From positions 1 to 64,000 of the forward strand of contig JAKAWJ010000002.1 in assembly GCA_021817005.1 (NCBI GenBank): 64,000 nt of DNA, written 5' to 3'. The notes beneath the pieces were generated by a model. That model was not told the origin of the DNA, did not search any database, and saw only the letters and a program-made list of their open reading frames with translations. Shown here piece by piece: positions 3,951 to 54,628 of the stretch (its first letter is position 1; each line of letters starts with the position of its first letter). This stretch comes from an archaeon (lineage in GTDB: Archaea > Thermoproteota > Thermoprotei_A > Marsarchaeales > Marsarchaeaceae). A program made the position numbers and the translations under genes.

Positions 3951-4195
3951 ATCGGATGAGGACCGAAGGATTGCGGATGAACAACCCAGTTTGCAGCCGC
4001 GTTTTGCTGCAAAATTATTGGTAGTAGACATGTGCAGGTTCACGGCTGATCCATCAAGCAAATTCGTGGAATAGGAACAATGCCGTATTGGCTTACGAAA
4101 GGCGCCAGTTCATGTGAATGGCCAGCGGACTCAAGGAACAACGTTCAAGGCTGCCACTCGTTTATAAGCCACCGAGAGAGTAAATGTTTGTCAGC

Positions 4196-4480
4196 ATGGT
4201 TTCTATGACGTACCAAGGACAGCGCTCTGAGAGCAGGTCAATGGATAGGCCAAGAATCGACGGTCCTACCAAATACATCCGAAATGGCCTTAACACAGAG
4301 ATTCTTGTGAGGCTTAAGGACGGCAGTCAGTTTCTGGGTCACCTGACCAGTTTTGATTCCGTTATGAATCTCATACTTACAGAGTCCAAAGAAATTGACA
4401 AGAGCGGAAATCCGAAGATGAACTTGGGCAGAGTTATGATTCGGGGAAGCAACATTATATTCGTAAGAATTTCACAATAA
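4196..4480 (+). CDS. Sm-like (LSm/SmAP) RNA-binding protein
   Basis: The protein has the Sm fold: an N-terminal helix, the Sm1 motif (VRLKDGSQFLGHLTSFDSVMN) and the Sm2 motif (VMIRGSNIIFV, the usual IRGxxI pattern). Archaeal Sm proteins form six- or seven-membered rings that bind U-rich RNA and take part in RNA processing. ATG 4184 is also in frame. A TATA element (tttataag, 4161-4168) puts transcription start near 4190, which favours the ATG at 4196. The first 25 residues are a polar extension before the Sm core. No neighbour is cotranscribed. Confidence 0.93.
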   Translation: MVSMTYQGQRSESRSMDRPRIDGPTKYIRNGLNTEILVRLKDGSQFLGHLTSFDSVMNLILTESKEIDKSGNPKMNLGRVMIRGSNIIFVRISQ

Positions 4481-4583
4481 CCTTGGGAAGTTTGCCCTAG
4501 CCTCAGAGCGAAACGCACGCTAGTCGGTGCGCTTCCCGTGCGTGACCAGCGCTAACCGATTAAATTAATAGCGGAGAATTCAG

Positions 4584-4604
4584 GGTGGTATCCCGGGAAC
4601 CACC
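4584..4604. repeat. 21-bp near-perfect palindrome
   Basis: ggtggt and accacc flank the self-complementary octamer tcccggga, with one extra A at 4590. It could be an operator for a dimeric regulator or a stable RNA hairpin. It lies about 380 bp upstream of mat. Confidence 0.6.
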
Positions 4605-4651
4605 AATGTAAATGCGTTATTTCGTAATCTATACCTAAGCTAGGACCCAGC

Positions 4652-4674
4652 TGCAGTAAAGGCGAATTACTGCA
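4652..4674. repeat. 8-bp stem, 7-nt loop hairpin
   Basis: tgcagtaa (4652-4659) pairs perfectly with ttactgca (4667-4674) across the loop aggcgaa. No T-run follows, so it is not a classical terminator. Confidence 0.55.
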
Positions 4675-4946
4675 TGGACGCGCTTTGCCGAGTTGCCTAC
4701 ATTGCCATGCCCCACTTCGGTCAGCCGTAGGTCGTCAGGGCCTCACCTAAAATTCAAGGTACCCGAAAAGCAAAATGATTTAATTTTTATCGGCAGTCGG
4801 CCAAGGAACTAAAAATTGATTATCACTCTGATTTGCCTGGAGTATTGGTTTGAACCGTTTTAATATTATCAGTCCTAAGAAGGGCTCCTGAACGCCGAAA
4901 TAGCCTCATTGGTCATTTCCACCTCACACGGTTATTCGTGGGTAAA

Positions 4947-4957
4947 CCCTTAAAAGT
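4947..4957 (+). promoter_or_regulatory. TATA box for mat
   Basis: The element cccttaaaagt is centred about 33 bp before the ATG at 4985. This predicts a very short 5' leader or none. Confidence 0.55.
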
Positions 4958-4984
4958 GGTACGGTTCTAACGCGCTGGACATAC

Positions 4985-6196
4985 ATGGACGATGTGGGTA
5001 TCAGCATATCGACATTCAAGGGTTCACGGGTATCCAATCAGCCCGTCGAATTCGTAGAACGGAAAGGTCTCGGCCACCCAGACTACATCGCAGACTCTGT
5101 GGCCGAGGAACTCTCGAGGAGGCTAGCCGTATACTATCTGGAGGAATATGGTACAATACTTCACCATAACGTAGACAAAACTTTGCTCGTTGGAGGTCAG
5201 GCGAACCCTTTCTATGGCGGAGGTGAAATTATCAGTCCAATCTTAATTGTACATGCAGGGAGGGCCACGAGTTACGTAAACCACGACGGAAAACTGCGAC
5301 ACATCCCGGTCGGTCGCCTGGCCGTGGAAGCGACCAAGGATTGGATAGCCAAGAATATGCGTTACCTCAACCCCGAAGCCCATCTTGTGGTAGATTACAA
5401 AATAAATCCTGGGTCTACGGATCTCGTGAAGATATTCGATGACGGGAAGAAAGCCCGACCGCTGTCAAATGACACTTCGTTTGGAGTGGGCTTCGCACCC
5501 TTTACTCCACTCGAACTTGCTGTCTATAACATCGAACGAGGTTTGAACTCCAAACAGTTCAAGTCGAGGGTACCCGAAAGTGGTGAAGATATCAAGGTGA
5601 TGGGCCTGAGGCGGAATGAAGAGTATATCATCACGATAGCCGCGGCTGTTCTATCCCCACTTACTAGAAACTACGAGCACTACGTAGATATTAAGAATCA
5701 AATTGCCGAAAAGGCTACTGAGATAGCCAAGAAATACACGACCAGTCATCCCCTGAAGGTCATGGTGAATACCGCTGACTCAATGGATAACCAGTACCTG
5801 ACGGTAACTGGGACAAGCGCGGAGCACGGTGACGACGGGGCAGTAGGTAGAGGCAATAGGTCAAATGGAATAATCACACCCAACCGACCCATGTCACTAG
5901 AAGCGGTCGCGGGAAAGAACCCGGTCTCACACGTGGGAAAGATATACAATATCGCCTCCCAAAGAATAGCTGAAGCTATCGCTAGCGAGCTCGGAATAAC
6001 TGAAGTTTATGTGAAGATGTTAAGCCAGATCGGTCGACCGATAGACGAACCACTTGAAGTCGACGTGCAGCTGCTAGCTAATGGCTCTCTGTCACCCTCC
6101 CTTCTTTCGAGCGCTAGGTCGATCGCCGAGGACCATGTCGAGAATCTACCAAAAATTACGGAAATGTTGGTCAAGGGAGAATTGAGCGTCACCTGA
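4985..6196 (+). CDS. mat: S-adenosylmethionine synthetase, archaeal type
   Basis: The 403-residue protein makes S-adenosylmethionine from methionine and ATP. It belongs to the archaeal MAT family, which is very divergent from bacterial MetK. Typical features are the N-terminal 'ERKGLGHPDYIADSVAEE', then 'NVDKTLLVGGQANPFYGGGE', 'GDDGAVGRGNRSNGIITP' and 'PVSHVGKIYN'. Length is normal for the family. It is a single-gene transcript that converges on the DUF460 gene; a shared hairpin lies between them. Confidence 0.97.
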   Translation: MDDVGISISTFKGSRVSNQPVEFVERKGLGHPDYIADSVAEELSRRLAVYYLEEYGTILHHNVDKTLLVGGQANPFYGGGEIISPILIVHAGRATSYVNHDGKLRHIPVGRLAVEATKDWIAKNMRYLNPEAHLVVDYKINPGSTDLVKIFDDGKKARPLSNDTSFGVGFAPFTPLELAVYNIERGLNSKQFKSRVPESGEDIKVMGLRRNEEYIITIAAAVLSPLTRNYEHYVDIKNQIAEKATEIAKKYTTSHPLKVMVNTADSMDNQYLTVTGTSAEHGDDGAVGRGNRSNGIITPNRPMSLEAVAGKNPVSHVGKIYNIASQRIAEAIASELGITEVYVKMLSQIGRPIDEPLEVDVQLLANGSLSPSLLSSARSIAEDHVENLPKITEMLVKGELSVT

Positions 6197-6197
6197 A

Positions 6198-6220
6198 AAT
6201 AATATCGAATAAATATTATT
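6198..6220. terminator. AT-rich hairpin between convergent genes, likely bidirectional terminator
   Basis: aataatat (6198-6205) pairs with atattatt (6213-6220) across a 7-nt loop. It begins just after the mat stop codon and overlaps the last codons of the convergent DUF460 gene, so it could end transcription in both directions. Confidence 0.55.
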
Positions 6221-8138
6221 CTTCGGACATCAATCTTCTGATTTCTTCGACCTTCTGCCTCTTTACTTTCTCTTTGAGTTCAGCCTTGCGAATGTGCGCA
6301 AGCTTCAGGGCGGAAGCAGCTACAAATCCGAGCTTTGCTCCCGGAATCTCCTGAAATTCGCTCTGAGAAGCTGTGAGAAGCGGAAGCTCCTGAAGCTCAA
6401 AAGCTGGTAAGATGGCGGGAGTCGCGTCTGGCACGACCAGTCCCGCTATCCCCGCTTTATTCATGGTTTCAAGGACGCGCACATCATACTGAATCGGGTT
6501 TCTGACATAGACTATTCCGGGACGCAGCGATGGATTTAGAGAAATGAGTTTCTGCATTTCAGACAAAGTAAGCGCTTCCATCACGCTCACGAACTCTATT
6601 TCGCCCCCCAGAAACCTTTCAATCGATTTGATAACCCCGCCCATCACTTTCTCTGATGCGACGAGTCTGACCTCCGCTTCCTCCGACCTTTTATGCAGCT
6701 CACTTATTCTGAGCTCGAGAGCTGCCACTTCTCTTTCCCTTCTGATTGGGGAATCCCTCTCTTCTACGGCTTTGTTCAATCTTGCCCTCAGTTCTTCGCT
6801 TTCCTCCCTCAGGCGCACTATTTCGGCCTGGGCATCAGCGGCGCGTGCCTTGAGCAGACTCATTTCTGCCGTAAAGTCAACAGATGGTCGGTTAGCGGCC
6901 GGGGCCTCTAAAACCGGTCGAACCGGCCGGGTCTCCGGCTCAGCATACTTTTGACGAATCGAGGATAGTGCAGCCGATATGTTTCGCCCGGCGAATACCT
7001 GCGCCAGCACCTCTGGCAGATATTTTGACAGCCCTTCCTCTAGTGTCTGAGCCTTCACATCTTCGATCAGCCGGGAATATAGAGAGTAAGCTTTGGCAGC
7101 TGCGGCAAGCGAATCCCGTTCGTGCGAGGTACGGGTTTTCTCGGAAGGATCTCGCCTTCGCACGAGTTCCCATTTTTCTTGAATCGAGAGGTTTTCAGAC
7201 GGCGCAAATAATTTTGCACCGAATGCGGCAGACAGTTTGCGAACTGCCTCGGGTGGTTTCGCCACATCAGTGCAGACCAGCAAGGGCTTTCCAAATTTGA
7301 CGCATCGGGAGGCAACTTCCATGCGATCGAGATTTCTCCCGCTAAAGAGCGCGAGCAGTTCCCCTCCCATCCCAATTACGGCCACGCCGCTTGTTGTTCC
7401 GGGGTCATAGCCCACGATAATCGCTCTTGATGGAGAGGGTTCAACCTGCCTGTATTTTGCAACCACTCTTTCAACCTTGACGGCATAATCTCTATTCACA
7501 GATGGATAGACCACCTTACGCAAGTCTTCCGGATTTGCATAGACCACAAACATCGCGGATGCAAAGCCACCGGTCGATTCGCGTGCGTAGAAGTCAAAGT
7601 CAAGTTTGGCCGACCTGAGCTTGGCCAAAATTCTATTTGCAAGGAATTTTATCTGTGACTCGACTTTTCGCTTGAAGCGCATGGTGCTTGAGCCGCCAGA
7701 GCCGGGCACTCGTCTTCTTACAATCCTAACAATGGTCTTCGGCGCAAACAGGTCCAGCGTCTTTCCGTAACCAAGCTTTGCGATTTTTGCAACCATGAGT
7801 GATGCCTGCAATGGCGGCAGTTTTCCTCCCCTCCACAACTCCAGACGCTCTGCCTTCCTCTCCAAGGGCTCGTCGTGGGCAACCTCGACAAACTGAACTG
7901 ACCTGCCCAGTTTCGAGAGTTCGAAAAGGAGTTTGTTCAGCCCGGGCGCGAGTTCTGCAAGATTGTCGAACGCGAGCACTTCAACTCGGTTTCGCTTGAT
8001 CAAGTCAGCCAGTGAACCAAGTCCCACGTCCTGAATAGTCCTTGAGGTATCATTGTCGCTGATAATCGTAACCATGAATGTGGAGGTTGCTTTGTGCGCC
8101 TCATGTGGATTGGTGTCCAGACCAGCTACTGTGACCAT
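6216..8138 (-). CDS. DUF460 / COG2433 protein with RNase H-like fold and coiled coil
   Basis: The 640-residue protein has an N-terminal alpha/beta domain and, around residues 235-255, the motif 'IIVGYDPGTTSGVAVIG', typical of RNase H-like/RuvC-like nucleotidyl folds. A charged coiled coil follows (about 420-510), then a C-terminal alpha/beta domain. The family is widespread in archaea and has no assigned biochemical role; a nucleic-acid function is inferred from the fold. The start overlaps the end of pyrG by 13 bp, so it is likely translated from the pyrG transcript. The overlap favours ATG 8138. Confidence 0.85.
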   Translation of the reverse strand: MVTVAGLDTNPHEAHKATSTFMVTIISDNDTSRTIQDVGLGSLADLIKRNRVEVLAFDNLAELAPGLNKLLFELSKLGRSVQFVEVAHDEPLERKAERLELWRGGKLPPLQASLMVAKIAKLGYGKTLDLFAPKTIVRIVRRRVPGSGGSSTMRFKRKVESQIKFLANRILAKLRSAKLDFDFYARESTGGFASAMFVVYANPEDLRKVVYPSVNRDYAVKVERVVAKYRQVEPSPSRAIIVGYDPGTTSGVAVIGMGGELLALFSGRNLDRMEVASRCVKFGKPLLVCTDVAKPPEAVRKLSAAFGAKLFAPSENLSIQEKWELVRRRDPSEKTRTSHERDSLAAAAKAYSLYSRLIEDVKAQTLEEGLSKYLPEVLAQVFAGRNISAALSSIRQKYAEPETRPVRPVLEAPAANRPSVDFTAEMSLLKARAADAQAEIVRLREESEELRARLNKAVEERDSPIRREREVAALELRISELHKRSEEAEVRLVASEKVMGGVIKSIERFLGGEIEFVSVMEALTLSEMQKLISLNPSLRPGIVYVRNPIQYDVRVLETMNKAGIAGLVVPDATPAILPAFELQELPLLTASQSEFQEIPGAKLGFVAASALKLAHIRKAELKEKVKRQKVEEIRRLMSEE

Positions 8139-9799
8139 CTGGTTTCCTTCACGCCTCCCTTACCTAGAAGTACGGGACGCGTAGGGACGCCAGCCGCGCG
8201 AGCTGCAGCTATCATGAATCCCAGATATGGGGGGCTTGGACGCAAAGGGCGAGATCTGAATTCCGGGTGAAACTGAGTTGCTACAAAGTAGGGGTGCCCT
8301 GGAAGTTCAATCACTTCTACGCGTCCGCCGGATTCGCTTACGCCCGTTATACTCATTCCTGCATCTATAAGGCTTCTAATGTATTTTGGATTTACTTCGT
8401 ATCTGTGACGGTGCCGTTCATTAATGACATCTTCTCCATAAAGGTCGAATATCTTGGATGGTCTGGACAAAATCACGGGATAGCCCCCCAAACGCATGGT
8501 ACCTCCCTTTGACGTAACATTCCCTTGCTCTGGCAGGAGGTCAACTACGGGGTGTGCGCATCCTTCATCATTCTCGGTGGAGTTCGCGCCTTTGAGCCCA
8601 AGGACGTTGCGCGCGAACTCTACGACGGAGAGCTGCATTCCGAAACATATGCCGAGAAAAGCTGTTGAACTGGTCCTTGCATATTGTATCGCCTTCACCT
8701 TGCCCTCCGTACCCCTCCTACCGAATCCAGGAAGCACCATTATTCCATGTATACCCCTAAATGCTTCAGCAAGGGCGTTCGTTTCCTCGAGAGTCTCAGC
8801 GCGCAGCCAATTTATGCGAACTCGCAGGCGGATCCATGCAGCTGCATGGACAAGCGCCTCGGAAATGCTAAGATAGGCATCAGGAAGTGCTGTGTATTTT
8901 CCAACCAAAGCAATCGTCACTTCGCCGTCCGGCTCGAGCACGCGTTCGACAAACTCCCTCCATCTCTTCAGCCCGGGGTCTAATGAGCGCCTTCTGCTTG
9001 CGAGCTTCAATCTCCTCTCTACGTAAGCGCCGAGCCCTTGTTCATCCAGTATTAGTGGCACCTGGTATATTGAGCTCACATCATATGAGGTAAAGATGGC
9101 CTCTTTTGGAACGCTTGTAAATAACGCCAGCTTGGCCCTAGAAGCTTCGTCAAGCAACCTAGCAGACCGCGCGACAATGACGTCAGGCTGCACGCCAATT
9201 CTACGCAACTCCTGAACGCTGTGTTGAGCCGGCTTGGTCTTGGTTTCCCCCGTGGATTTGAGTTCCGGTACGAGCGGGACGTGCACAAACAGGGTGTTAT
9301 CGTATCCCTGCTCCATTCGAAACTGACGGATAGCCTCCAGGAATGGAAGACTTTCGATATCACCTACTGTTCCCCCTATTTCGACAGTCAGTACGTCAAT
9401 ATCGAGAGAGCGACCGTAATCTAGTAGCAAGTCTTTGATCTCGTCAACTACGTGTGGAATAATCTGAACAGTCTGGCCCAGATAGTCACCTTTCCTCTCT
9501 TTCTCGATGACTCGCTTGTATACCAAGCCAGTGGTTATGTTCGCGTGTTTTGATAGCTCAATGTCCAGGAATCTCTCATAATGGCCGAGATCCAAGTCTG
9601 TCTCACCTCCATCTTGGGTAACGAATACCTCACCGTGTTGGTAAGGATTCATGGTACCCGCATCAACATTCACGTACGGATCCATTTTGACCGAAGAAAC
9701 ACTCGAACCGGCCGACTGGAGTATCTTGCCGATGGATGAGGTGACTATCCCTTTACCCACACTACTCAGCACACCACCAGTAACGAATACATACTTCAA
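8126..9799 (-). CDS. pyrG: CTP synthase (glutamine hydrolysing)
   Basis: It converts UTP to CTP using ATP and glutamine. The synthase domain opens with 'KYVFVTGGVLSSVGKG' and 'KMDPYVNVDAGTMNPYQHGE'. The class-I glutaminase domain has its nucleophile in 'FLGICFGMQLSVVEF' and the His-Glu pair in 'ATQFHPEF'. The frame stays open to a TTG at 9865, but families start exactly at 'MKYVFVTGG'. A TATA box at 9883-9890 predicts transcription from about 9860, and aaggt lies 8-12 bp before the TTG at 9799. I therefore choose 9799, giving 557 residues. Confidence 0.95.
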   Translation of the reverse strand: MKYVFVTGGVLSSVGKGIVTSSIGKILQSAGSSVSSVKMDPYVNVDAGTMNPYQHGEVFVTQDGGETDLDLGHYERFLDIELSKHANITTGLVYKRVIEKERKGDYLGQTVQIIPHVVDEIKDLLLDYGRSLDIDVLTVEIGGTVGDIESLPFLEAIRQFRMEQGYDNTLFVHVPLVPELKSTGETKTKPAQHSVQELRRIGVQPDVIVARSARLLDEASRAKLALFTSVPKEAIFTSYDVSSIYQVPLILDEQGLGAYVERRLKLASRRRSLDPGLKRWREFVERVLEPDGEVTIALVGKYTALPDAYLSISEALVHAAAWIRLRVRINWLRAETLEETNALAEAFRGIHGIMVLPGFGRRGTEGKVKAIQYARTSSTAFLGICFGMQLSVVEFARNVLGLKGANSTENDEGCAHPVVDLLPEQGNVTSKGGTMRLGGYPVILSRPSKIFDLYGEDVINERHRHRYEVNPKYIRSLIDAGMSITGVSESGGRVEVIELPGHPYFVATQFHPEFRSRPLRPSPPYLGFMIAAARAAGVPTRPVLLGKGGVKETRWSQ

Positions 9800-48593: not shown

Positions 48594-48607
48594 GCGCCGG
48601 CGCGAGG
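48594..48607. repeat. Left attachment repeat (attL-like), gcgccggcgcgagg
   Basis: Identical to 54532-54545. In both places aagtcca stands just upstream, separated by three bases here and one base there. Confidence 0.8.
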
Positions 48608-48653
48608 CTTTATTCCTTTAGGGTTATAATCCCAAACACTATTTCCTTGGTGT

Positions 48654-48947
48654 ATGAGCCTGACGCACGACTACGACGCCGCGTTGAAGTATGCGTACCG
48701 CAGGCTTGAGCGGTCGCCGTTAGCGGAGGCGGACAAGCGGCTCATACGCGGCTTCGCCGAGCACATGGCTGCGCGCGGCGTCTCCAAGATCAGGCTTGCC
48801 ACGCTCATCGAGAAGAGTGTGCTGTGCGCCGAGAGGCTCGGCGTCCCCGCGGCGTCGGCGGGGAGGGGGGAGGTGGAGCGGCTGATGCGCTGGCTCTTCC
48901 AGGAGTCGGGGTACAGCCAGGAGACCGCGGCCACGGCGGCCGTCAAA
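48654..48947 (+). pseudogene. Tyrosine recombinase (integrase), N-terminal part only
   Basis: The 98 residues 'DYDAALKYAYRRLERSPLA... RLATLIEKSVLCAERLGV' match the N-terminal core-binding (SAM-like) domain of archaeal tyrosine integrases. The catalytic R-H-R-Y domain is absent here and elsewhere in the window. The frame continues to 49049 only by reading antisense through the neighbouring DruA-like gene. The break lies near 48935-48947, where 'gacggccgtcaaaa'-type sequence is shared by both genes. Confidence 0.82.
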
Positions 48948-49601
48948 AGTCTCTCCGGAGATTCGTGTCTTCGAGTTAGCATATTTTTTCTCAAAGTCTC
49001 TCCTGACAGTCGGCGATGCTGCAAGCGCGGCAACAAGTTTGCCACCTAAAACCAGGGAGTAAGGGGGGACCGCACCCAGGACAAACGCGTCCATCACATG
49101 CTTAAGGTTCCGCGCTTTGGTGGGTTTGTCCCAGCCTATGTATGTGTCCCGGGCCCGCAGGCTGTAGACCGGGTCGCCCAGCCCTATGATCCCGATTAGC
49201 GCGTTATTGGAGTTGTTGAAGACGAGGTAGCGGAGCCTTCTCCCGTATCCGCTTGAGACAGGGATCGACCAGTGGAACTTCACCCACCTGAACAGCTCCG
49301 CGTCCCTTTCACACCCTACCTGCCTCATTACTGGGTCCATGCCGTCCAAGTCGAGTTCTCTGCCGTCAATTATGTAGCGGTTCACGAATTCGTTATCCAC
49401 GCGCTTTATGAAATTCGAGTCCCGCTTGAGAAGATACTCCACCGCCCCCCTGTGCATTGCCCTGACCAACTCCTTATCCGGATGTGCTGACTGCATCCCA
49501 CCCAACGAGCCCAAGCCAAGCTTGGACAAGTGGGTAACAACCCGTTCCTTCAGGAGTTCCAAATCCGCTTTTAAAGGAGCCTGCCCAGGTTTCCGATCCA
49601 C
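48936..49601 (-). pseudogene. DruA-like protein (DUF4338), C-terminally truncated
   Basis: The protein matches DUF4338, the family of Druantia DruA: 'LVRAMHRGAVEYLLKRDS', 'WVKFHWSIPVSSGYGRRLRYLV', 'IGIIGLGDPVYSLRARDTYIGW' and 'RNLKHVMDAFVLGAVPPYSLVL'. Family members continue for roughly 150-200 residues beyond 'SGETFDGR'. Here the frame runs out antisense into the integrase remnant, so about 220 residues survive. Start is GTG 49601. Some DUF4338 proteins belong to anti-phage systems, others are associated with mobile elements; the function of a truncated copy is unclear. Confidence 0.8.
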
Positions 49602-49845
49602 GCCTATGCCAATCGCAGCGCAGGCCCAAGCCTTTCGCTTTCCTTAACTGTGATGTGGTAAATCAGGTTGAATAACCAGCTAGACTAGGTCCCAACAAGG
49701 CCTACCCTTGAATCAACTTACGCCCTTCAGGCGTGCGAATTTTAACAGTTGGACAGGGTCTGCGAAGGTTGAATCTGCATTTGGGTTGGTGGTGCCAAAA
49801 CACGTGGGTGCCCGCGGTGTGCGGGAATGAATATTGCATTAAACC

Positions 49846-49970
49846 TTGATGAACTCGGTAAATTGGATATCGCTTGCTAATAGTATCGATGAGTATGGGT
49901 CGGTTGTAGGGAGTAGAGTGGCCCGCGCTTCGGGGTTACATGACCTAGTCAGGTCAAAGGTAAAGTATTG
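49846..49970 (+). pseudogene. Truncated duplicate of the element's first gene (5' end only)
   Basis: The peptide 'LANSIDEYGSVVGSRVARASGLHDLVRSKV' matches 'LTNSMDEYGSAVRSEVARASALRDPVRS' encoded at 52154-52240. The DNA at 49873-49959 aligns with 52154-52240 almost without gaps. The frame then runs into the AT-rich cargo and is meaningless to its stop at 50055. Confidence 0.75.
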
Positions 49971-49994
49971 GAAGCAGGTTTGTTATAGACTTGG

Positions 49995-50573
49995 TCACCT
50001 GAGTGTATGCGTTTCGTCATATTTAATGTTAAACCATTTTTTGCCTTTCTTATAACTTACTATGAATCTTAAAAATCTGCCATCTGTATCCTTTCCATTA
50101 TCTCTCATAACTACTGTTATAGTGGAGTCAATATCGGCATTTTTGTTCAGTTCATATAAGTACTCATTATCTTTGTTTAGATCAATTCTCACAAGAGGTT
50201 TTGCATTGAATTCAATCTTTGCTATCTCGTAATTGTGTGAGACTATAAGTCTAATGCTTTCGATGAAGATCTGAAGTTCATTCTTATCCAATATGTACGG
50301 TCTTATTTTTAGTATAATTTCGCCGCTTTCTTCCCTGGTCGCCTTAATTCTTGGTGGTTCGGCTGTAAACAACTCTCTATAGTACGACATAATTGCAAAT
50401 ACATAGGTGAAGGACAGGACCAATACGCCGGAAATTGGCAAAACAATTTGATTCAAAATATATATGTGGGGAACTTTACTATAGAAATCGGGTATTAGTA
50501 TAGAGACTACAAATAGAAGTGTCGATAACATTAACAAGATACCACTGTAAAGCGGGATTCTTTTGACATCCAT
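49995..50573 (-). CDS. Two-span membrane protein of unknown family (cargo gene 3)
   Basis: The 192-residue protein has two hydrophobic spans (YSGILLMLSTLLFVVSILIP, about residues 8-27; and LPISGVLVLSFTYVFAIMSY, about 46-66) and then a soluble, beta-rich domain of about 120 residues. The N-terminus is short and basic, so the C-terminal domain is probably cytoplasmic. It is the last gene of the three-gene AT-rich operon, 17 bp after gene 2. No family recognised. A membrane protein with a sensor-like domain would fit an effector role, which is speculation. Confidence 0.75.
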   Translation of the reverse strand: MDVKRIPLYSGILLMLSTLLFVVSILIPDFYSKVPHIYILNQIVLPISGVLVLSFTYVFAIMSYYRELFTAEPPRIKATREESGEIILKIRPYILDKNELQIFIESIRLIVSHNYEIAKIEFNAKPLVRIDLNKDNEYLYELNKNADIDSTITVVMRDNGKDTDGRFLRFIVSYKKGKKWFNIKYDETHTLR

Positions 50574-50590
50574 CTAAGTCTGCCTCAGTG

Positions 50591-50923
50591 TTAATATGTG
50601 ACCGCAATTTTTTTGAATGATTCAATTTTTTCGGTTGGTCTTCTTGGAATCACATACAAATCAGTACGTGTTACCTCAATCTGAGTTATGTAAGAATCGT
50701 CCAGACCAGTTACATCAAAAACCAGTGACAACACGTCTTGAACAGCTACGTTTTTGTCGAGTTTTGGAATTTGAACTTCTTCTTTGAGAATTGTTCCGAC
50801 TTTTACGGTTGAATATCGAAAGAAGAACGTGTATTCTTCAATTTTAAATTCATTTTTACCTTCTTCTAATATTTTCCGCAGGAGTAAATCAAATAGAGAA
50901 GACGTTTCGAGAGGGACACGCAT
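50591..50923 (-). CDS. Small soluble protein of unknown family (cargo gene 2)
   Basis: The 110-residue protein is acidic and mixed alpha/beta ('ETSSLFDLLLRKILEEGKNEFKIEEYTFFFRYS...'). I recognise no motif. It lies 18 bp after cargo gene 1 and 17 bp before cargo gene 3. Low GC and short spacers mark one transfer unit. Confidence 0.75.
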   Translation of the reverse strand: MRVPLETSSLFDLLLRKILEEGKNEFKIEEYTFFFRYSTVKVGTILKEEVQIPKLDKNVAVQDVLSLVFDVTGLDDSYITQIEVTRTDLYVIPRRPTEKIESFKKIAVTY

Positions 50924-50941
50924 GTTAATTCCACCTCAGAT

Positions 50942-51721
50942 CTAATGTGCACGAAACTTATCGTAGGCTTCTGAAAGCCTTGAAACACCGTATAGAATCG
51001 CTTCATAATATATTACCTCATCATCTTCTCTTTTTGGCCTTGCCAAGTTGAGCCATCCATTATTATAAAGGATGACCTCCATTGTTGGTAGTAGTTTTGC
51101 TAATTCTACTCTTGGTGTTATTCTAACTCCCGCGGCCTCCCTGAATTGTTCCTGAATTTGGGCCTCCCTCATAGAGGGATCAAGATATCTTTCATCTATT
51201 CTATGTTTCCCCCTTCTCGCTCTTCTGCTCGTAGACTCCATATCACCGTTAAAAATTTCGTTGTAACGCCTATCTTTAGGCTCAGCAGTATTAAGGTATT
51301 CTATAAAATCCTCGTCGAATGAAATCTTTTTTCTTATTGTGACATGAATATTGAGCGCTTTAAAAATATCTGTTATTGCGTTCGCTGAACCTTTTTCCGC
51401 AATTACATAGACATTATAATTGGCGTCATTTTCTTTATTGCTAGTGACACAAATTCTTCGATTTTGAGAGTCTATATTTTCCTTGACTTCTTTTGTTAGT
51501 GGGTCAACCCTTTCAGTTTTTTTCCTAGTCCAAAAATCAAAAGTAAAATATTTTTCAATATTCAACCTCCCATTTCCCTCTTGGTTACTCTGGTACCAAG
51601 AACTGATTTCTTTTGAGCTATCAGCATATTGTGGGCCGTGCTTTTCTAAAAAAACCTTAATTTGTTTCATTACCTCACCATAGCTCAACTCCTCTATATG
51701 AATCACACCAACTTGTGTCAC
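50942..51721 (-). CDS. Soluble protein of unknown family (cargo gene 1)
   Basis: This 259-residue protein is the first of the AT-rich operon. The N-terminal 150 residues are alpha/beta ('NYNVYVIAEKGSANAITDIFKALNIHVTIRKKISF'). A basic linker (STSRRARRGKHRIDERY, about 165-181) connects to a helical C-terminal domain ('QIQEQFREAAGVRITPRVELAKLL'). The basic linker suggests nucleic-acid contact. No catalytic motif is evident. Its GC content is far below its neighbours. Confidence 0.75.
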   Translation of the reverse strand: MTQVGVIHIEELSYGEVMKQIKVFLEKHGPQYADSSKEISSWYQSNQEGNGRLNIEKYFTFDFWTRKKTERVDPLTKEVKENIDSQNRRICVTSNKENDANYNVYVIAEKGSANAITDIFKALNIHVTIRKKISFDEDFIEYLNTAEPKDRRYNEIFNGDMESTSRRARRGKHRIDERYLDPSMREAQIQEQFREAAGVRITPRVELAKLLPTMEVILYNNGWLNLARPKREDDEVIYYEAILYGVSRLSEAYDKFRAH

Positions 51722-51758
51722 TGCATTAATTCACCTAGTTCTGATGGAATCACATGAT

Positions 51759-51772
51759 ACAATTTATAAATC
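51759..51772 (-). promoter_or_regulatory. TATA box of the cargo operon
   Basis: The minus strand reads gatttataaattg. Its centre is about 45 bp before the ATG at 51721, leaving a short leader. Confidence 0.6.
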
Positions 51773-51795
51773 TTTACCACACTCTGTTGCTTACT

Positions 51796-52053
51796 TTAAA
51801 TGAAGGGTTTGTCGACTTTAAGATAATCATTCATTGACAGCCAGTGACACCCCATCTGATTACGACCATCAATCGAAACCACATAAACTTTCGTTTTCTG
51901 CATCAATACCACATCCTTCTGAAGATCCTTCCGCTTTCCGCATGGAATGATCCCAATCTCATCTAAACATCGGAACCACTTCCTCTGCTCGGCGTCGTGT
52001 AGACGGCCGTGGCGGATCAGCTCCCAAACCAGGAGCAGAGCTGCGGCGAACGG
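51796..52053 (-). pseudogene. Remnant of a gene lacking its 5' end
   Basis: An 85-codon frame after an in-frame stop (52054-52056) reads 'PFAAALLLVWELIRHGRLHDAE', 'KWFRCLDEIGIIPCGKRKD' and 'KTKVYVVSIDGRNQMGCHWL', ending 'KVDKPFI'. It is GC-richer at its 5' side than its 3' side. There is no ATG, GTG or TTG before the internal ATG of 'MQKTK', so it looks like the C-terminal end of a lost gene. No family recognised. Confidence 0.5.
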
Positions 52054-52109
52054 CTAAAGCGGTTTTGAGGTTTGTCGGCATAAAAATTTGAGGGTGCCCA
52101 TAATGTCTA

Positions 52110-52119
52110 GGAGTTGATG
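52110..52119 (+). promoter_or_regulatory. TATA box for the element's right-arm operon
   Basis: ttatattata is centred about 25 bp before the ATG at 52139, so a leaderless start there is likely. Confidence 0.55.
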
Positions 52120-52138
52120 TTATATTATAGATGAATAC

Positions 52139-52586
52139 ATGAAATTGGAGTTGCTTACTAATAGTATGGATGAGTATGGGTCGGCTGTGAGGAGCGAGGT
52201 GGCCCGGGCCTCGGCTCTCCGAGACCCTGTCCGCTCACGTGGAGACGCTTAGGTCGACGTTCCTCGACCCCGAGTGGGCTCGGGCCGTGCCCAACGTGTA
52301 CGAGTACGCCGAGAAGCTTGAGAAGGACACCAGGGACGGAGACGCCAAGTACACGGTGACCCACAGGGATGTGCGCCTCAAGAGGAACTTCATACTCACG
52401 AGCGTGGCGCTGTGGACCGCGGCGGACACAGTGTTCACCAGGATCCTCCAGCTTCTGAAGGAGAACGGGCAGTACTACCCGCAGCGCGTCGCACCCTTCT
52501 CCCTCGGCGAGGCGCTCCAGCTCGCCGACGACGTGAGGCGTGCGGGGTCACCCCAGATCCTCAGGGAGGTTGAAAGCAATAGATGA
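52139..52586 (+). pseudogene. Element gene A, unknown, with a frameshift near 52238
   Basis: The first 33 codons (MKLELLTNSMDEYGSAVRSEVARASALRDPVRS) match the duplicate at 49846. The frame then meets a stop at 52250-52252, while the +1 frame continues as 'VETLRSTFLDPEWARAVPNVYEYAEKLEKD' and onward to 52586. One missing or extra base near 52238 would join them into a protein of about 149 residues. The product is helical and charged; no family recognised. It overlaps gene B by 17 bp. Confidence 0.65.
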
Positions 52587-53261
52587 CGATGAAAGCCCGG
52601 CGGAGCGCTTCGTGGACGAAGCCAAGGGCATACGCCACCCCCGGTCGAACGCCGCGGGCTACATCCAGGCGTCCAGGTACGGCACGGCGGTGGTCGTCGA
52701 CCCGCTTGAGGAGGTGCGCCAGCTGTGCGAAGCGATAATCGGGCTCTCGGACTCGGAGCTCAGGAAGGCCGGAGTCACCAAGGAGGAGTACGCCGAGGTC
52801 GAGTACATCTACGACGTGGCGCTCGCCTTCAAGCAGGCGTATATCCGGGGCCCGCCCGGGGAGAAGGTTGTGAGCCTCCCCTCCCCTTCCTCGGCGACTC
52901 CGAGGAGGAGGACGGCGCCAGGCTCACAGAGTTCTCGACGCGGTGGCTCCCCGCCTCGGACGCAAGGGAGATCGTCTTCCTCGGCCCGGCGAAGATGGAC
53001 GCGGTGGCCGCGGTGGTGCAGAGGTTCCCCCAGCCCAAGTACTTCGTCGACGAGAAAGGAGACAAATGCGTCGACGGCTGGCAGGAGGTGCAGGAGGCGT
53101 ACACCGTGCTCAACGCCCTGAAGGACTACATCACCGTGGAGAGCTACGAGAACCTGCGTGTCCGCTTCTGCTCCTACGCGCTTAAGCGGCTGCTAAAGAT
53201 CCAGCGGAAGACGCTTTCGCTTCTGAACGAGGCGGCGATGGAGAGTGTCTTCAAGAAGTAA
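52570..53261 (+). pseudogene. Element gene B, unknown, with a frameshift in C-rich sequence near 52885
   Basis: From TTG 52570 the first part reads 'MKAIDDDESPAERFVDEAKGIRHPRSN ... FKQAYIRGPPGEKVVSLP'. The frame breaks in the run 'cctcccctccccttcc' (about 52878-52894). The second part resumes in the next frame as 'GDSEEEDGARLTEFSTRW' and ends 'SLLNEAAMESVFKK'. Joined, the protein has about 230 residues, acidic in the middle. No family recognised. The stop overlaps the GTG of gene C. Confidence 0.6.
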
Positions 53262-54440
53262 ATCCGACCTGACCCTCCCCGGCCTCGCCGGCTACGAGCG
53301 CGTGGTGTACAGGGACGACGAAGTCTACGTGATCGACCACGACGGCTTCAAGATGACGTGGTACAGGGACCGGCCGCAGCAGTACTCGCCTATCCCGTAC
53401 GAGAAGCCGAACGTGTTCTTCGTGGTGGGGGGAGCACGCGACACCGGGAAATCCACTACGCTGGAGTTCCTCGCGGAGCGCTACCTGGAACACGGGGCGC
53501 GCGTGGTGGACCTCCAGGGGGAGGAGGACGGGGAAGGCCTCGCCTGGCTCCGGTCGCCCCACGCCTCAAAGAAGAAGGTGCTGCTGCTGAAGAGCCCCCG
53601 CGTCGAGGTCCACAGGTCGCCGTGCTCCGTCATAGACTACACCGACTTCTCACACCCCCTCCTGGAGGAATACGACATAATCGTCAACGCCACGCCCCTC
53701 TACACGTCTGTGCAGGAGGAGCTTGGCGCCGCACGCGAAGTGTTCGTGCGGATGAGCGCCAGGCTGTCGTGGAGCCGGGAGGCGGCGGCCGTGGTGAGGG
53801 AGGCGCAGGACCTGTTCACCTCCCGGGTGTACGCCTACGAAGGCCAGAAGGAGACCAAGGGCGTCGGCGTCTACATGGTGCGCAAGAGCCGCCACTTCGG
53901 CGTCGCCACCCTGCTCGACACCCTCAAGGAGACGAGCATCGACGCCGACATCAGGCAGCTCTCCGATTACGTGCTGTTCAAGGGGGTGGGCGTCTGGGGG
54001 CTCCCCGCCGCCTTCAAGTGGGTGTACGCATACGTCGACCCCCCCCCCCGTCCCTCGCCACGCTACCCAAGAACAGGTGCGTGGTCGTGCCTAGGAACAC
54101 GGCGCTCGGCTACGGCGCCGTTCCCTACGTCACCTGGCACAAGAAGGAGTCGGAGAACATCGTCGCCGCAGCCGGCATAGAGGTGGAGAAGCCCCCCGAG
54201 GACGGGTTCACGCCGCAGAAGGCGGCGGGGATCAACGCCGAGACCCACGTTGGCATAGTGGAGAGCTACGCCCTAGGTATGTCCATGGCCGCCACAGCCC
54301 TCAAATACGGCGTCTCAAGCGCCACCGTGAAGAGCCACGTTTGGAGGCACAACGACGCTGTCGCCAGGGAGACGCGCTGCGGGATATGCGCCGCCGAAGG
54401 CTCAGCCCTAGCCGGCGAAGCTGTGAACGTCAGGCGGTGA
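53245..54440 (+). pseudogene. Element gene C: P-loop ATPase with a C-terminal HTH-like region, frameshifted in an 11-C tract
   Basis: The N-terminal part has a Walker A loop in 'FFVVGGARDTGKSTTLEFLAERY' and a Walker-B-like 'EYDIIVNATP'. After the C tract at 54039-54049 the frame breaks; one more C would join it to 'TLPKNRCVVVPRN ... YVTWHKKESENIVAAAG'. The last 70 residues hold a helix-turn-helix ('ESYALGMSMAATALKYGVSSATVKSHV') and a 'CGIC' pair. Full length is about 398 residues. A role in packaging, transfer or replication of the element is inferred from the fold only. Confidence 0.7.
54039..54049 (+). repeat. Homopolymer tract of 11 C
   Basis: The tract lies within gene C and sets its frame. 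With 12 C (or 9) the gene is intact; with 11 it is broken. It may be a slippage-prone switch or an assembly error. Confidence 0.7.
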
Positions 54441-54531
54441 CCCAGGTGAAACGGCCCAGCAAACTCCAACCATGCAGCGTCTCCTCATGCGGTCAGGATT
54501 CTGGTGCAGGGATTCTAACCTTGAAGTCCAA

Positions 54532-54545
54532 GCGCCGGCGCGAGG
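54532..54545. repeat. Right attachment repeat (attR-like) inside the tRNA-Asn 3' end
   Basis: The 14 bp gcgccggcgcgagg cover the 3' acceptor strand and the start of the T-stem of tRNA-Asn, so the gene stayed intact after integration. Confidence 0.8.
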
Positions 54546-54628
54546 ATTCGAACCTCGGACCACTCGGTGTCTGCTCGTATCGCCTACGAGTAACAGCCGA
54601 GTGCTCTACCTAACTGAGCTACGCCGGC
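54533..54628 (-). tRNA. tRNA-Asn (GUU) with a 22-nt intron at 37/38
   Basis: On the minus strand: acceptor gccggcg/cgccggc, anticodon stem ctcgg/ccgag, anticodon GTT, T-arm cgagg-ttcgaat-cctcg, discriminator G. The 22-nt intron contains a perfect six-pair hairpin, ctcgta-ggcga-tacgag. This is the canonical intron site. The tRNA serves as attachment site for the element on its 3' side. Confidence 0.94.

What the first reader, a model, noticed from the sequence alone, without database searches (positions are those of the whole stretch)
49995..51721. Unrecognised AT-rich three-gene operon inside the element: the best candidate for a new system
Three minus-strand genes of 259, 110 and 192 residues are separated by 17-18 bp and share a TATA box at 51761-51770. 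GC content is far below both the host and the element arms. Gene 1 has a basic linker, gene 3 has two membrane spans and a cytoplasmic domain. I know no family for any of them. Soluble sensor, small partner and membrane effector would be a defence-like or toxin-like layout, but this is inference.
Basis: partly seen in the sequence, partly recalled or inferred. Interest (0 to 1): 0.85.

Follow-up and report, generated by a model that had tools for sequence, protein, structure and literature searches.

The report
Orphan three-gene archaeal membrane-protein cassette
Three neighbouring genes of unknown kind, dropped into a broken mobile element of an archaeon, turn up again as the same three-gene set in a distant relative, so they are a real travelling gene cassette, possibly a cell-suicide defence against viruses, although what it does has not been shown.

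Summary
The three genes are real and lie exactly where stated: 259, 110 and 192 codons, minus strand, 18 and 17 bp apart, each with a Shine-Dalgarno-like site, 36% GC against 50% for the host and 64% for the element arms. None matches Pfam, NCBIfam, PADLOC, PHROGs, the PDB, phages, plasmids or viral contigs. One genome of another family in the same archaeal class (G509) carries the same cassette: 260, 112 and 214 aa, same order, 2-3 bp gaps, third protein again starting with two membrane spans. Gene 1 is homologous along its length (BLASTP 8e-10) and gene 2 is related (4e-5). Gene 3 rests on position and topology. So this is a conserved, mobile, very rare three-gene unit (2 of 229 genomes in the class). 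In the window it sits in a 3.3-kb block that replaced 11.5 kb of a tRNA-Ser-integrated element; the sister species carries restriction-modification and a helicase-nuclease in the replaced stretch. Gene 3's layout resembles S-2TMbeta effectors (Cap15, OptE), but no sequence test supports membership and gene 1 lacks nucleotide-cyclase motifs. A membrane-effector defence or toxin unit is the best guess (about 40%), untested. Both structure models are too weak to use.

The parts
50942..51721 (-). Gene 1, 259 aa, soluble alpha/beta protein of a new family
   Evidence: ORF far longer than shuffles give; full-length homologue in G509, BLASTP 8e-10, local z=15.5; no hit in Pfam, NCBIfam, PADLOC or PDB
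50591..50923 (-). Gene 2, 110 aa, small soluble partner
   Evidence: ORF with GAGGTG site; homologue at the same place in G509, BLASTP 4e-5, z=6.1
49995..50573 (-). Gene 3, 192 aa, two N-terminal membrane spans and a C-terminal beta-rich domain
   Evidence: Hydropathy; AF2 gives two confident helices (pLDDT 76-86) and a low-confidence beta domain; G509 counterpart of 214 aa with two spans in the same place, sequence similarity marginal (global z=4.1, local not significant)
51761..51770 (-). TATA-box-like TTTATAAATT, candidate archaeal promoter of the operon
   Evidence: Only exact match in the window, 0.15 expected; 40 nt upstream of the gene 1 start
48939..52230 (.). 3.3-kb replacement block that brought the operon in; absent from the sister species
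   Evidence: G001 matches the window up to 48938 and again from 52231; block not found in 60 relatives except for short matches
48594..54548 (.). Decayed element integrated in tRNA-Ser (att repeat 48594-48610 / 54532-54548; tRNA 54532-54628 -)
   Evidence: Repeat, tRNA, same site and arms at 96% identity in G001
48654..48944 (+). First part of a tyrosine integrase, cut off at the block
   Evidence: The counterpart in G001 continues into the Phage_integrase domain (E=6.7e-14) and a zinc ribbon
48945..49601 (-). Truncated DruA/DUF4338 gene, C-terminal part lost at the junction
   Evidence: Pfam DruA 3.3e-51, profile positions 3-184 of 297; full-length relatives are about 410 aa

Best explanation
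A conserved, horizontally moving three-gene archaeal cassette made of a soluble alpha/beta protein of about 260 aa, a small soluble protein of about 110 aa and a two-pass membrane protein with a C-terminal beta-rich domain. Most likely it works as an intracellular conflict (defence or toxin-like) module: the two soluble proteins form a complex that senses an infection or restrains the third protein, and on triggering the two-pass protein oligomerises in and damages the membrane. Shown: the three ORFs, operon layout, conservation of the whole set in a second distant genome, two membrane spans in both gene 3 proteins, foreign composition and replacement of element DNA. Inferred: complex formation, cytoplasmic placement of the beta domain (positive residues before span 1 and after span 2), sensing, membrane damage and antiviral function.
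For: Same order and sizes in G509 with 2-3 bp gaps, which points to co-translation; gene 1 and gene 2 homology. Patchy distribution: 2 of 229 genomes of the class with the gene 1 query and none but the window in 398 phylum genomes (other matches chance-level). Strong divergence (22-28% identity), low GC against neighbours in both genomes (36% vs 50-64%; 47% vs 64% in the HMG-CoA reductase gene next to it). The corresponding stretch of the sister element carries an m5C methyltransferase, a Vsr-type nuclease and a UvrD/PD-(D/E)XK protein, and a DruA remnant lies next to the operon. Two membrane spans plus a beta-rich domain from about residue 70 is the layout described for S-2TMbeta effectors (PMC12657218).
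Against: No domain, fold or catalytic motif was found; gene 1 has neither GGDD nor GS..DxD. The gene 3 beta domain is low confidence (pLDDT 34-61) and Foldseek gave nothing at E<0.001. In G509 the neighbours seen are not defence genes, but that contig is only 4.3 kb. Only two examples are known, so linkage to defence genes cannot be tested statistically. DruA here is broken and has a different GC content (55%), so it need not belong with the operon.
Confidence: 0.4

Rival explanations
1. A membrane-associated secretion, surface or signalling complex of the archaeal 'dark matter' kind: two soluble proteins dock to a two-pass membrane anchor; no role in defence.
For: Such variable membrane operons are abundant in archaeal islands (PMC4158269); in G509 a frame with a pilin-like hydrophobic start lies downstream (L049 4029-; own reading, no Pfam hit).
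Against: No secretion ATPase, signal peptide or pilin-processing gene is in the cassette; both soluble proteins lack evident signal sequences; the cassette also occurs in an integrated element next to remnants of other acquired genes.
Confidence: 0.27
2. Genes of an unknown virus or plasmid (replication or virion module) left in the element after recombination.
For: The block sits inside an integrated element and is a mosaic with gene fragments.
Against: No match in 50,697 phage records, 2.9 million viral contigs or 72,556 plasmids, although the viral-contig scans find only close relatives; in G509 it lies beside the chromosomal HMG-CoA reductase gene.
Confidence: 0.2
3. Toxin-antitoxin type addiction module: gene 3 or gene 1 is the toxin, gene 2 the antidote.
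For: A small partner in a tight operon, patchy spread, mobile context.
Against: No similarity to known toxin or antitoxin families; three genes with the largest one first is unusual; nothing was tested.
Confidence: 0.1
4. Assembly artefact: the AT-rich block was joined wrongly into this draft contig.
For: The genome is a draft (84.6% complete, 56 contigs) and the block has no copy in the sister species.
Against: Both junctions fall inside genes and return to syntenic DNA of 91-96% identity; the flanking D1 repeats are only 75% identical, too different to confuse an assembler. The cassette itself is real because it recurs in G509.
Confidence: 0.03

Closest known systems
S-2TMbeta effectors: CBASS Cap15 and Panoptes OptE (PMC12657218)
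   Same: Gene 3 has two N-terminal membrane spans followed from about residue 70 by a beta-rich soluble domain; it is small (192 and 214 aa) and encoded with soluble partners.
   Different: No Pfam, NCBIfam or PADLOC hit, no PDB sequence hit, unreliable fold model; the partners show no CD-NTase or mCpol motif.
Druantia (DruA, DUF4338)
   Same: A DruA-family fragment lies just downstream on the same strand.
   Different: DruA is truncated and has different GC; no DruE helicase is nearby; genes 1-3 match no Druantia model; the short G509 contig holds no DruA.
Thaumarchaeal integrated elements with restriction-modification cargo (PMC6563490)
   Same: tRNA-targeted integration, tyrosine integrase, variable cargo including restriction genes in the sister species.
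   Different: Here the integrase and the centre of the element are lost and an unrelated block lies between the arms.
Archaeal 'dark matter' membrane-associated operons (PMC4158269)
   Same: Lineage-specific, fast-evolving operons with membrane proteins in islands.
   Different: This particular gene set was not matched to any described family with the tools used; arCOGs were not searched.

Membership tests
S-2TMbeta / Cap15-type effector system | Two-pass N-terminal membrane segment | tested here: met
   Two spans in window gene 3 and in the G509 counterpart
S-2TMbeta / Cap15-type effector system | Sequence match of the beta-barrel domain to the family | tested here: not met
   No such hit in Pfam, NCBIfam, PADLOC or PDB sequences
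S-2TMbeta / Cap15-type effector system | Minimal beta-barrel fold of the soluble domain | tested here: inconclusive
   Model shows 8-9 strands but pLDDT 34-61; Foldseek best E=0.23, no Cap15 in the top 50
S-2TMbeta / Cap15-type effector system | Partner that makes a cyclic nucleotide (CD-NTase GS..DxD or mCpol GGDD) | tested here: not met
   No GGDD or GS..DxD pattern in either gene 1 protein; no Pfam hit
S-2TMbeta / Cap15-type effector system | Nucleotide-gated membrane disruption | not testable with these tools
   Needs expression and dye-leakage or binding assays
Druantia | DruE helicase with other Dru proteins | tested here: not met
   Genes 1-3 match no PADLOC model; no DruE-sized ORF between 46 and 56 kb
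Druantia | Intact DruA | tested here: not met
   DruA ends at profile position 184 of 297, at the junction with the integrase fragment
Anti-virus defence system (any) | Protection from viruses on expression | not testable with these tools
Anti-virus defence system (any) | Recurrent linkage to defence genes | tested here: inconclusive
   Suggestive in the window and sister locus, not seen in the 4.3-kb G509 contig; n=2

The most novel reading that the evidence does not exclude
A previously undescribed three-protein archaeal immune or abortive-infection system made of three new protein families, with a two-pass membrane effector controlled directly by a soluble protein pair and not by a cyclic nucleotide.
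Probability: 0.28. Interest if true: 0.8.

Novelty: new variant of a known kind. Interest (0 to 1): 0.52.

Why it matters
Defence systems of archaea outside the model groups are poorly known, and genome scans miss systems made only of unknown families. Showing that an orphan operon recurs as a unit in a distant genome turns three anonymous reading frames into one testable system with defined components. If it is a membrane effector module, it would show how two-pass membrane killers work in archaeal membranes and without nucleotide signals.

Tried and rejected
Weak matches rejected after looking at them: gene 3 against an unrelated Arthrobacter 732-aa protein and gene 1 against an ABC-transporter ATPase in G158. 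A match of gene 3 inside a 413-codon frame in G488/G022 was rejected because its neighbours showed no cassette and a profile of gene 3 scored it at only 4.9 bits. Profiles of all three genes run over every fetched locus found no third cassette. Rejected: DruA as part of the system (truncated, 55% GC, not seen on the G509 contig); CD-NTase or mCpol identity of gene 1 (no motifs); fold-based annotation (gene 1 pLDDT 41, gene 3 pLDDT 60, Foldseek E of 0.23 or more). DUF4338 literature and DruA relatives gave no lead to genes 1-3.

Full report
Observation. The three genes are present as described. Their reading frames are far longer than chance gives in DNA of this composition: 262 stop-free codons against at most 185 in 500 dinucleotide shuffles. 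Each start is preceded by a Shine-Dalgarno-like site. TTTATAAATT at 51761-51770 is the only exact match in 64 kb, with 0.15 expected, and lies 40 nt upstream of the gene 1 start. GC is 36% against 50% for the host and 64% for the element arms.

Where it sits. The element runs from 48594 to 54548: a repeat at the 3' end of tRNA-Ser (54532-54628, minus) recurs at 48594-48610. The sister species G001 has the same element in the same tRNA gene. Its DNA matches the window at 91% up to 48938 and at 96% from 52231 onward, flanks included. Between those points G001 has 11.5 kb: the catalytic part of a tyrosine integrase with a zinc ribbon, an m5C methyltransferase next to a 370-aa protein without Pfam hits, a Vsr-type nuclease, a UvrD helicase with PD-(D/E)XK nuclease, and further genes. 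The window has instead a 3.3-kb block (48939-52230): a DruA/DUF4338 gene cut at the junction (Pfam positions 3-184 of 297; relatives are about 410 aa), two diverged copies of an 85-bp coding-like repeat, the AT-rich operon, and an 85-codon gene fragment. The integrase is cut at about residue 97. The element is therefore a remnant, and the operon belongs to the replacement block.

What the genes are. No family in Pfam, NCBIfam, PADLOC or PHROGs reaches significance, nor does any PDB sequence. Scans of viral contigs, genome contigs, plasmids and phages found nothing real. The decisive result came from searching all 229 genomes of the class with gene 1: G509, from another family, matched at E=7e-5 (about 0.016 after correction for 229 genomes). 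Reading its locus showed the whole cassette: 260, 112 and 214 aa, same order and strand, gaps of 2 and 3 bp, the third protein with two N-terminal membrane spans. Direct comparison gives BLASTP 8e-10 over nearly the full length of gene 1, 4e-5 for gene 2, and no significant local match for gene 3. In shuffle tests gene 1 has z=15.5, gene 2 z=6.1 and gene 3 only global z=4.1, while cross-pairings of non-corresponding genes are at noise level. Homology of gene 3 therefore rests mainly on position and topology. In G509 the operon (47% GC) lies beside an HMG-CoA reductase gene of 64% GC. The G509 gene 1 found no third case in 202 genomes (whether G000 was among them is not shown), and the two-row profile found only the window among 240 phylum genomes (G509 was evidently not in that draw).

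Conserved features of gene 1 include F..DFIE.LN (135-144) and DME (160-162). No cyclase motif is present. Structure prediction without an alignment failed for gene 1 (pLDDT 41) and gave only the two helices of gene 3 with confidence; Foldseek gave no meaningful hit.

Mechanism. Two spans plus a beta-rich domain beginning near residue 70 is the layout of S-2TMbeta effectors, which disrupt membranes in CBASS and Panoptes (PMC12657218). This is a resemblance of layout, not membership: the sequence test fails and the partner lacks a cyclase. Patchy distribution, strong divergence, low GC in both genomes, tight operon structure and the neighbouring restriction and DruA genes are what a conflict system would show, but membrane or secretion operons in archaeal islands share most of these traits (PMC4158269). 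I give the membrane-effector conflict module 40%, a secretion, surface or signalling complex 27%, virus or plasmid genes 20% and toxin-antitoxin 10%.

Novelty. Three protein families with no detectable relatives form a unit that recurs in two distant archaea. Function is unknown, so 'categorically new' would overstate it; the working class is a new variant of small operons with a two-pass membrane protein. The host is an archaeon (a gene I read as DNA topoisomerase VI subunit A next to the element, archaeal-type promoter); that its class is Nitrososphaeria is my inference from genome sizes and kinship tables, not a tool result.

Noticed in passing
L018 (G001:C128:10000-29000) 4040-9760: The sister element carries a methyltransferase, a 370-aa likely restriction partner without Pfam hits, a Vsr-type nuclease and a UvrD/PD-(D/E)XK protein in the stretch replaced in the window.
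   Followed up: partly
48945-49601: Truncated DruA/DUF4338 gene, probably of bacterial origin (45% identity to Meiothermus); not found in 59 archaeal relatives.
   Followed up: partly
49872-49956 and 52153-52237: Two 75% identical 85-bp direct repeats flank the operon; differences fall mostly at third codon positions (11 against 5 and 5), so they look like start fragments of one unknown gene family; the second is fused to the element gene at the junction.
   Followed up: partly
51797-52050: An 85-codon gene fragment on the minus strand just upstream of the operon, no clear family (best Pfam RecA_dep_nuc, E=0.13).
   Followed up: partly
L018 10651-11062: Tandem repeat array just before the membrane-protein genes of the sister element.
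   Followed up: no
G000:C9:22191-22285 and G004:C32 (L020, L019): Pieces related to the element's integrase start lie near tRNA-Ala genes in the same genome and in a relative, so this integrase group may use more than one tRNA site.
   Followed up: partly
53245-54440: The P-loop gene of the window's right arm is frameshifted near a C tract at about 54041-54050, whereas the G001 copy reads on in one frame there; this fits further decay or a sequencing error.
   Followed up: no
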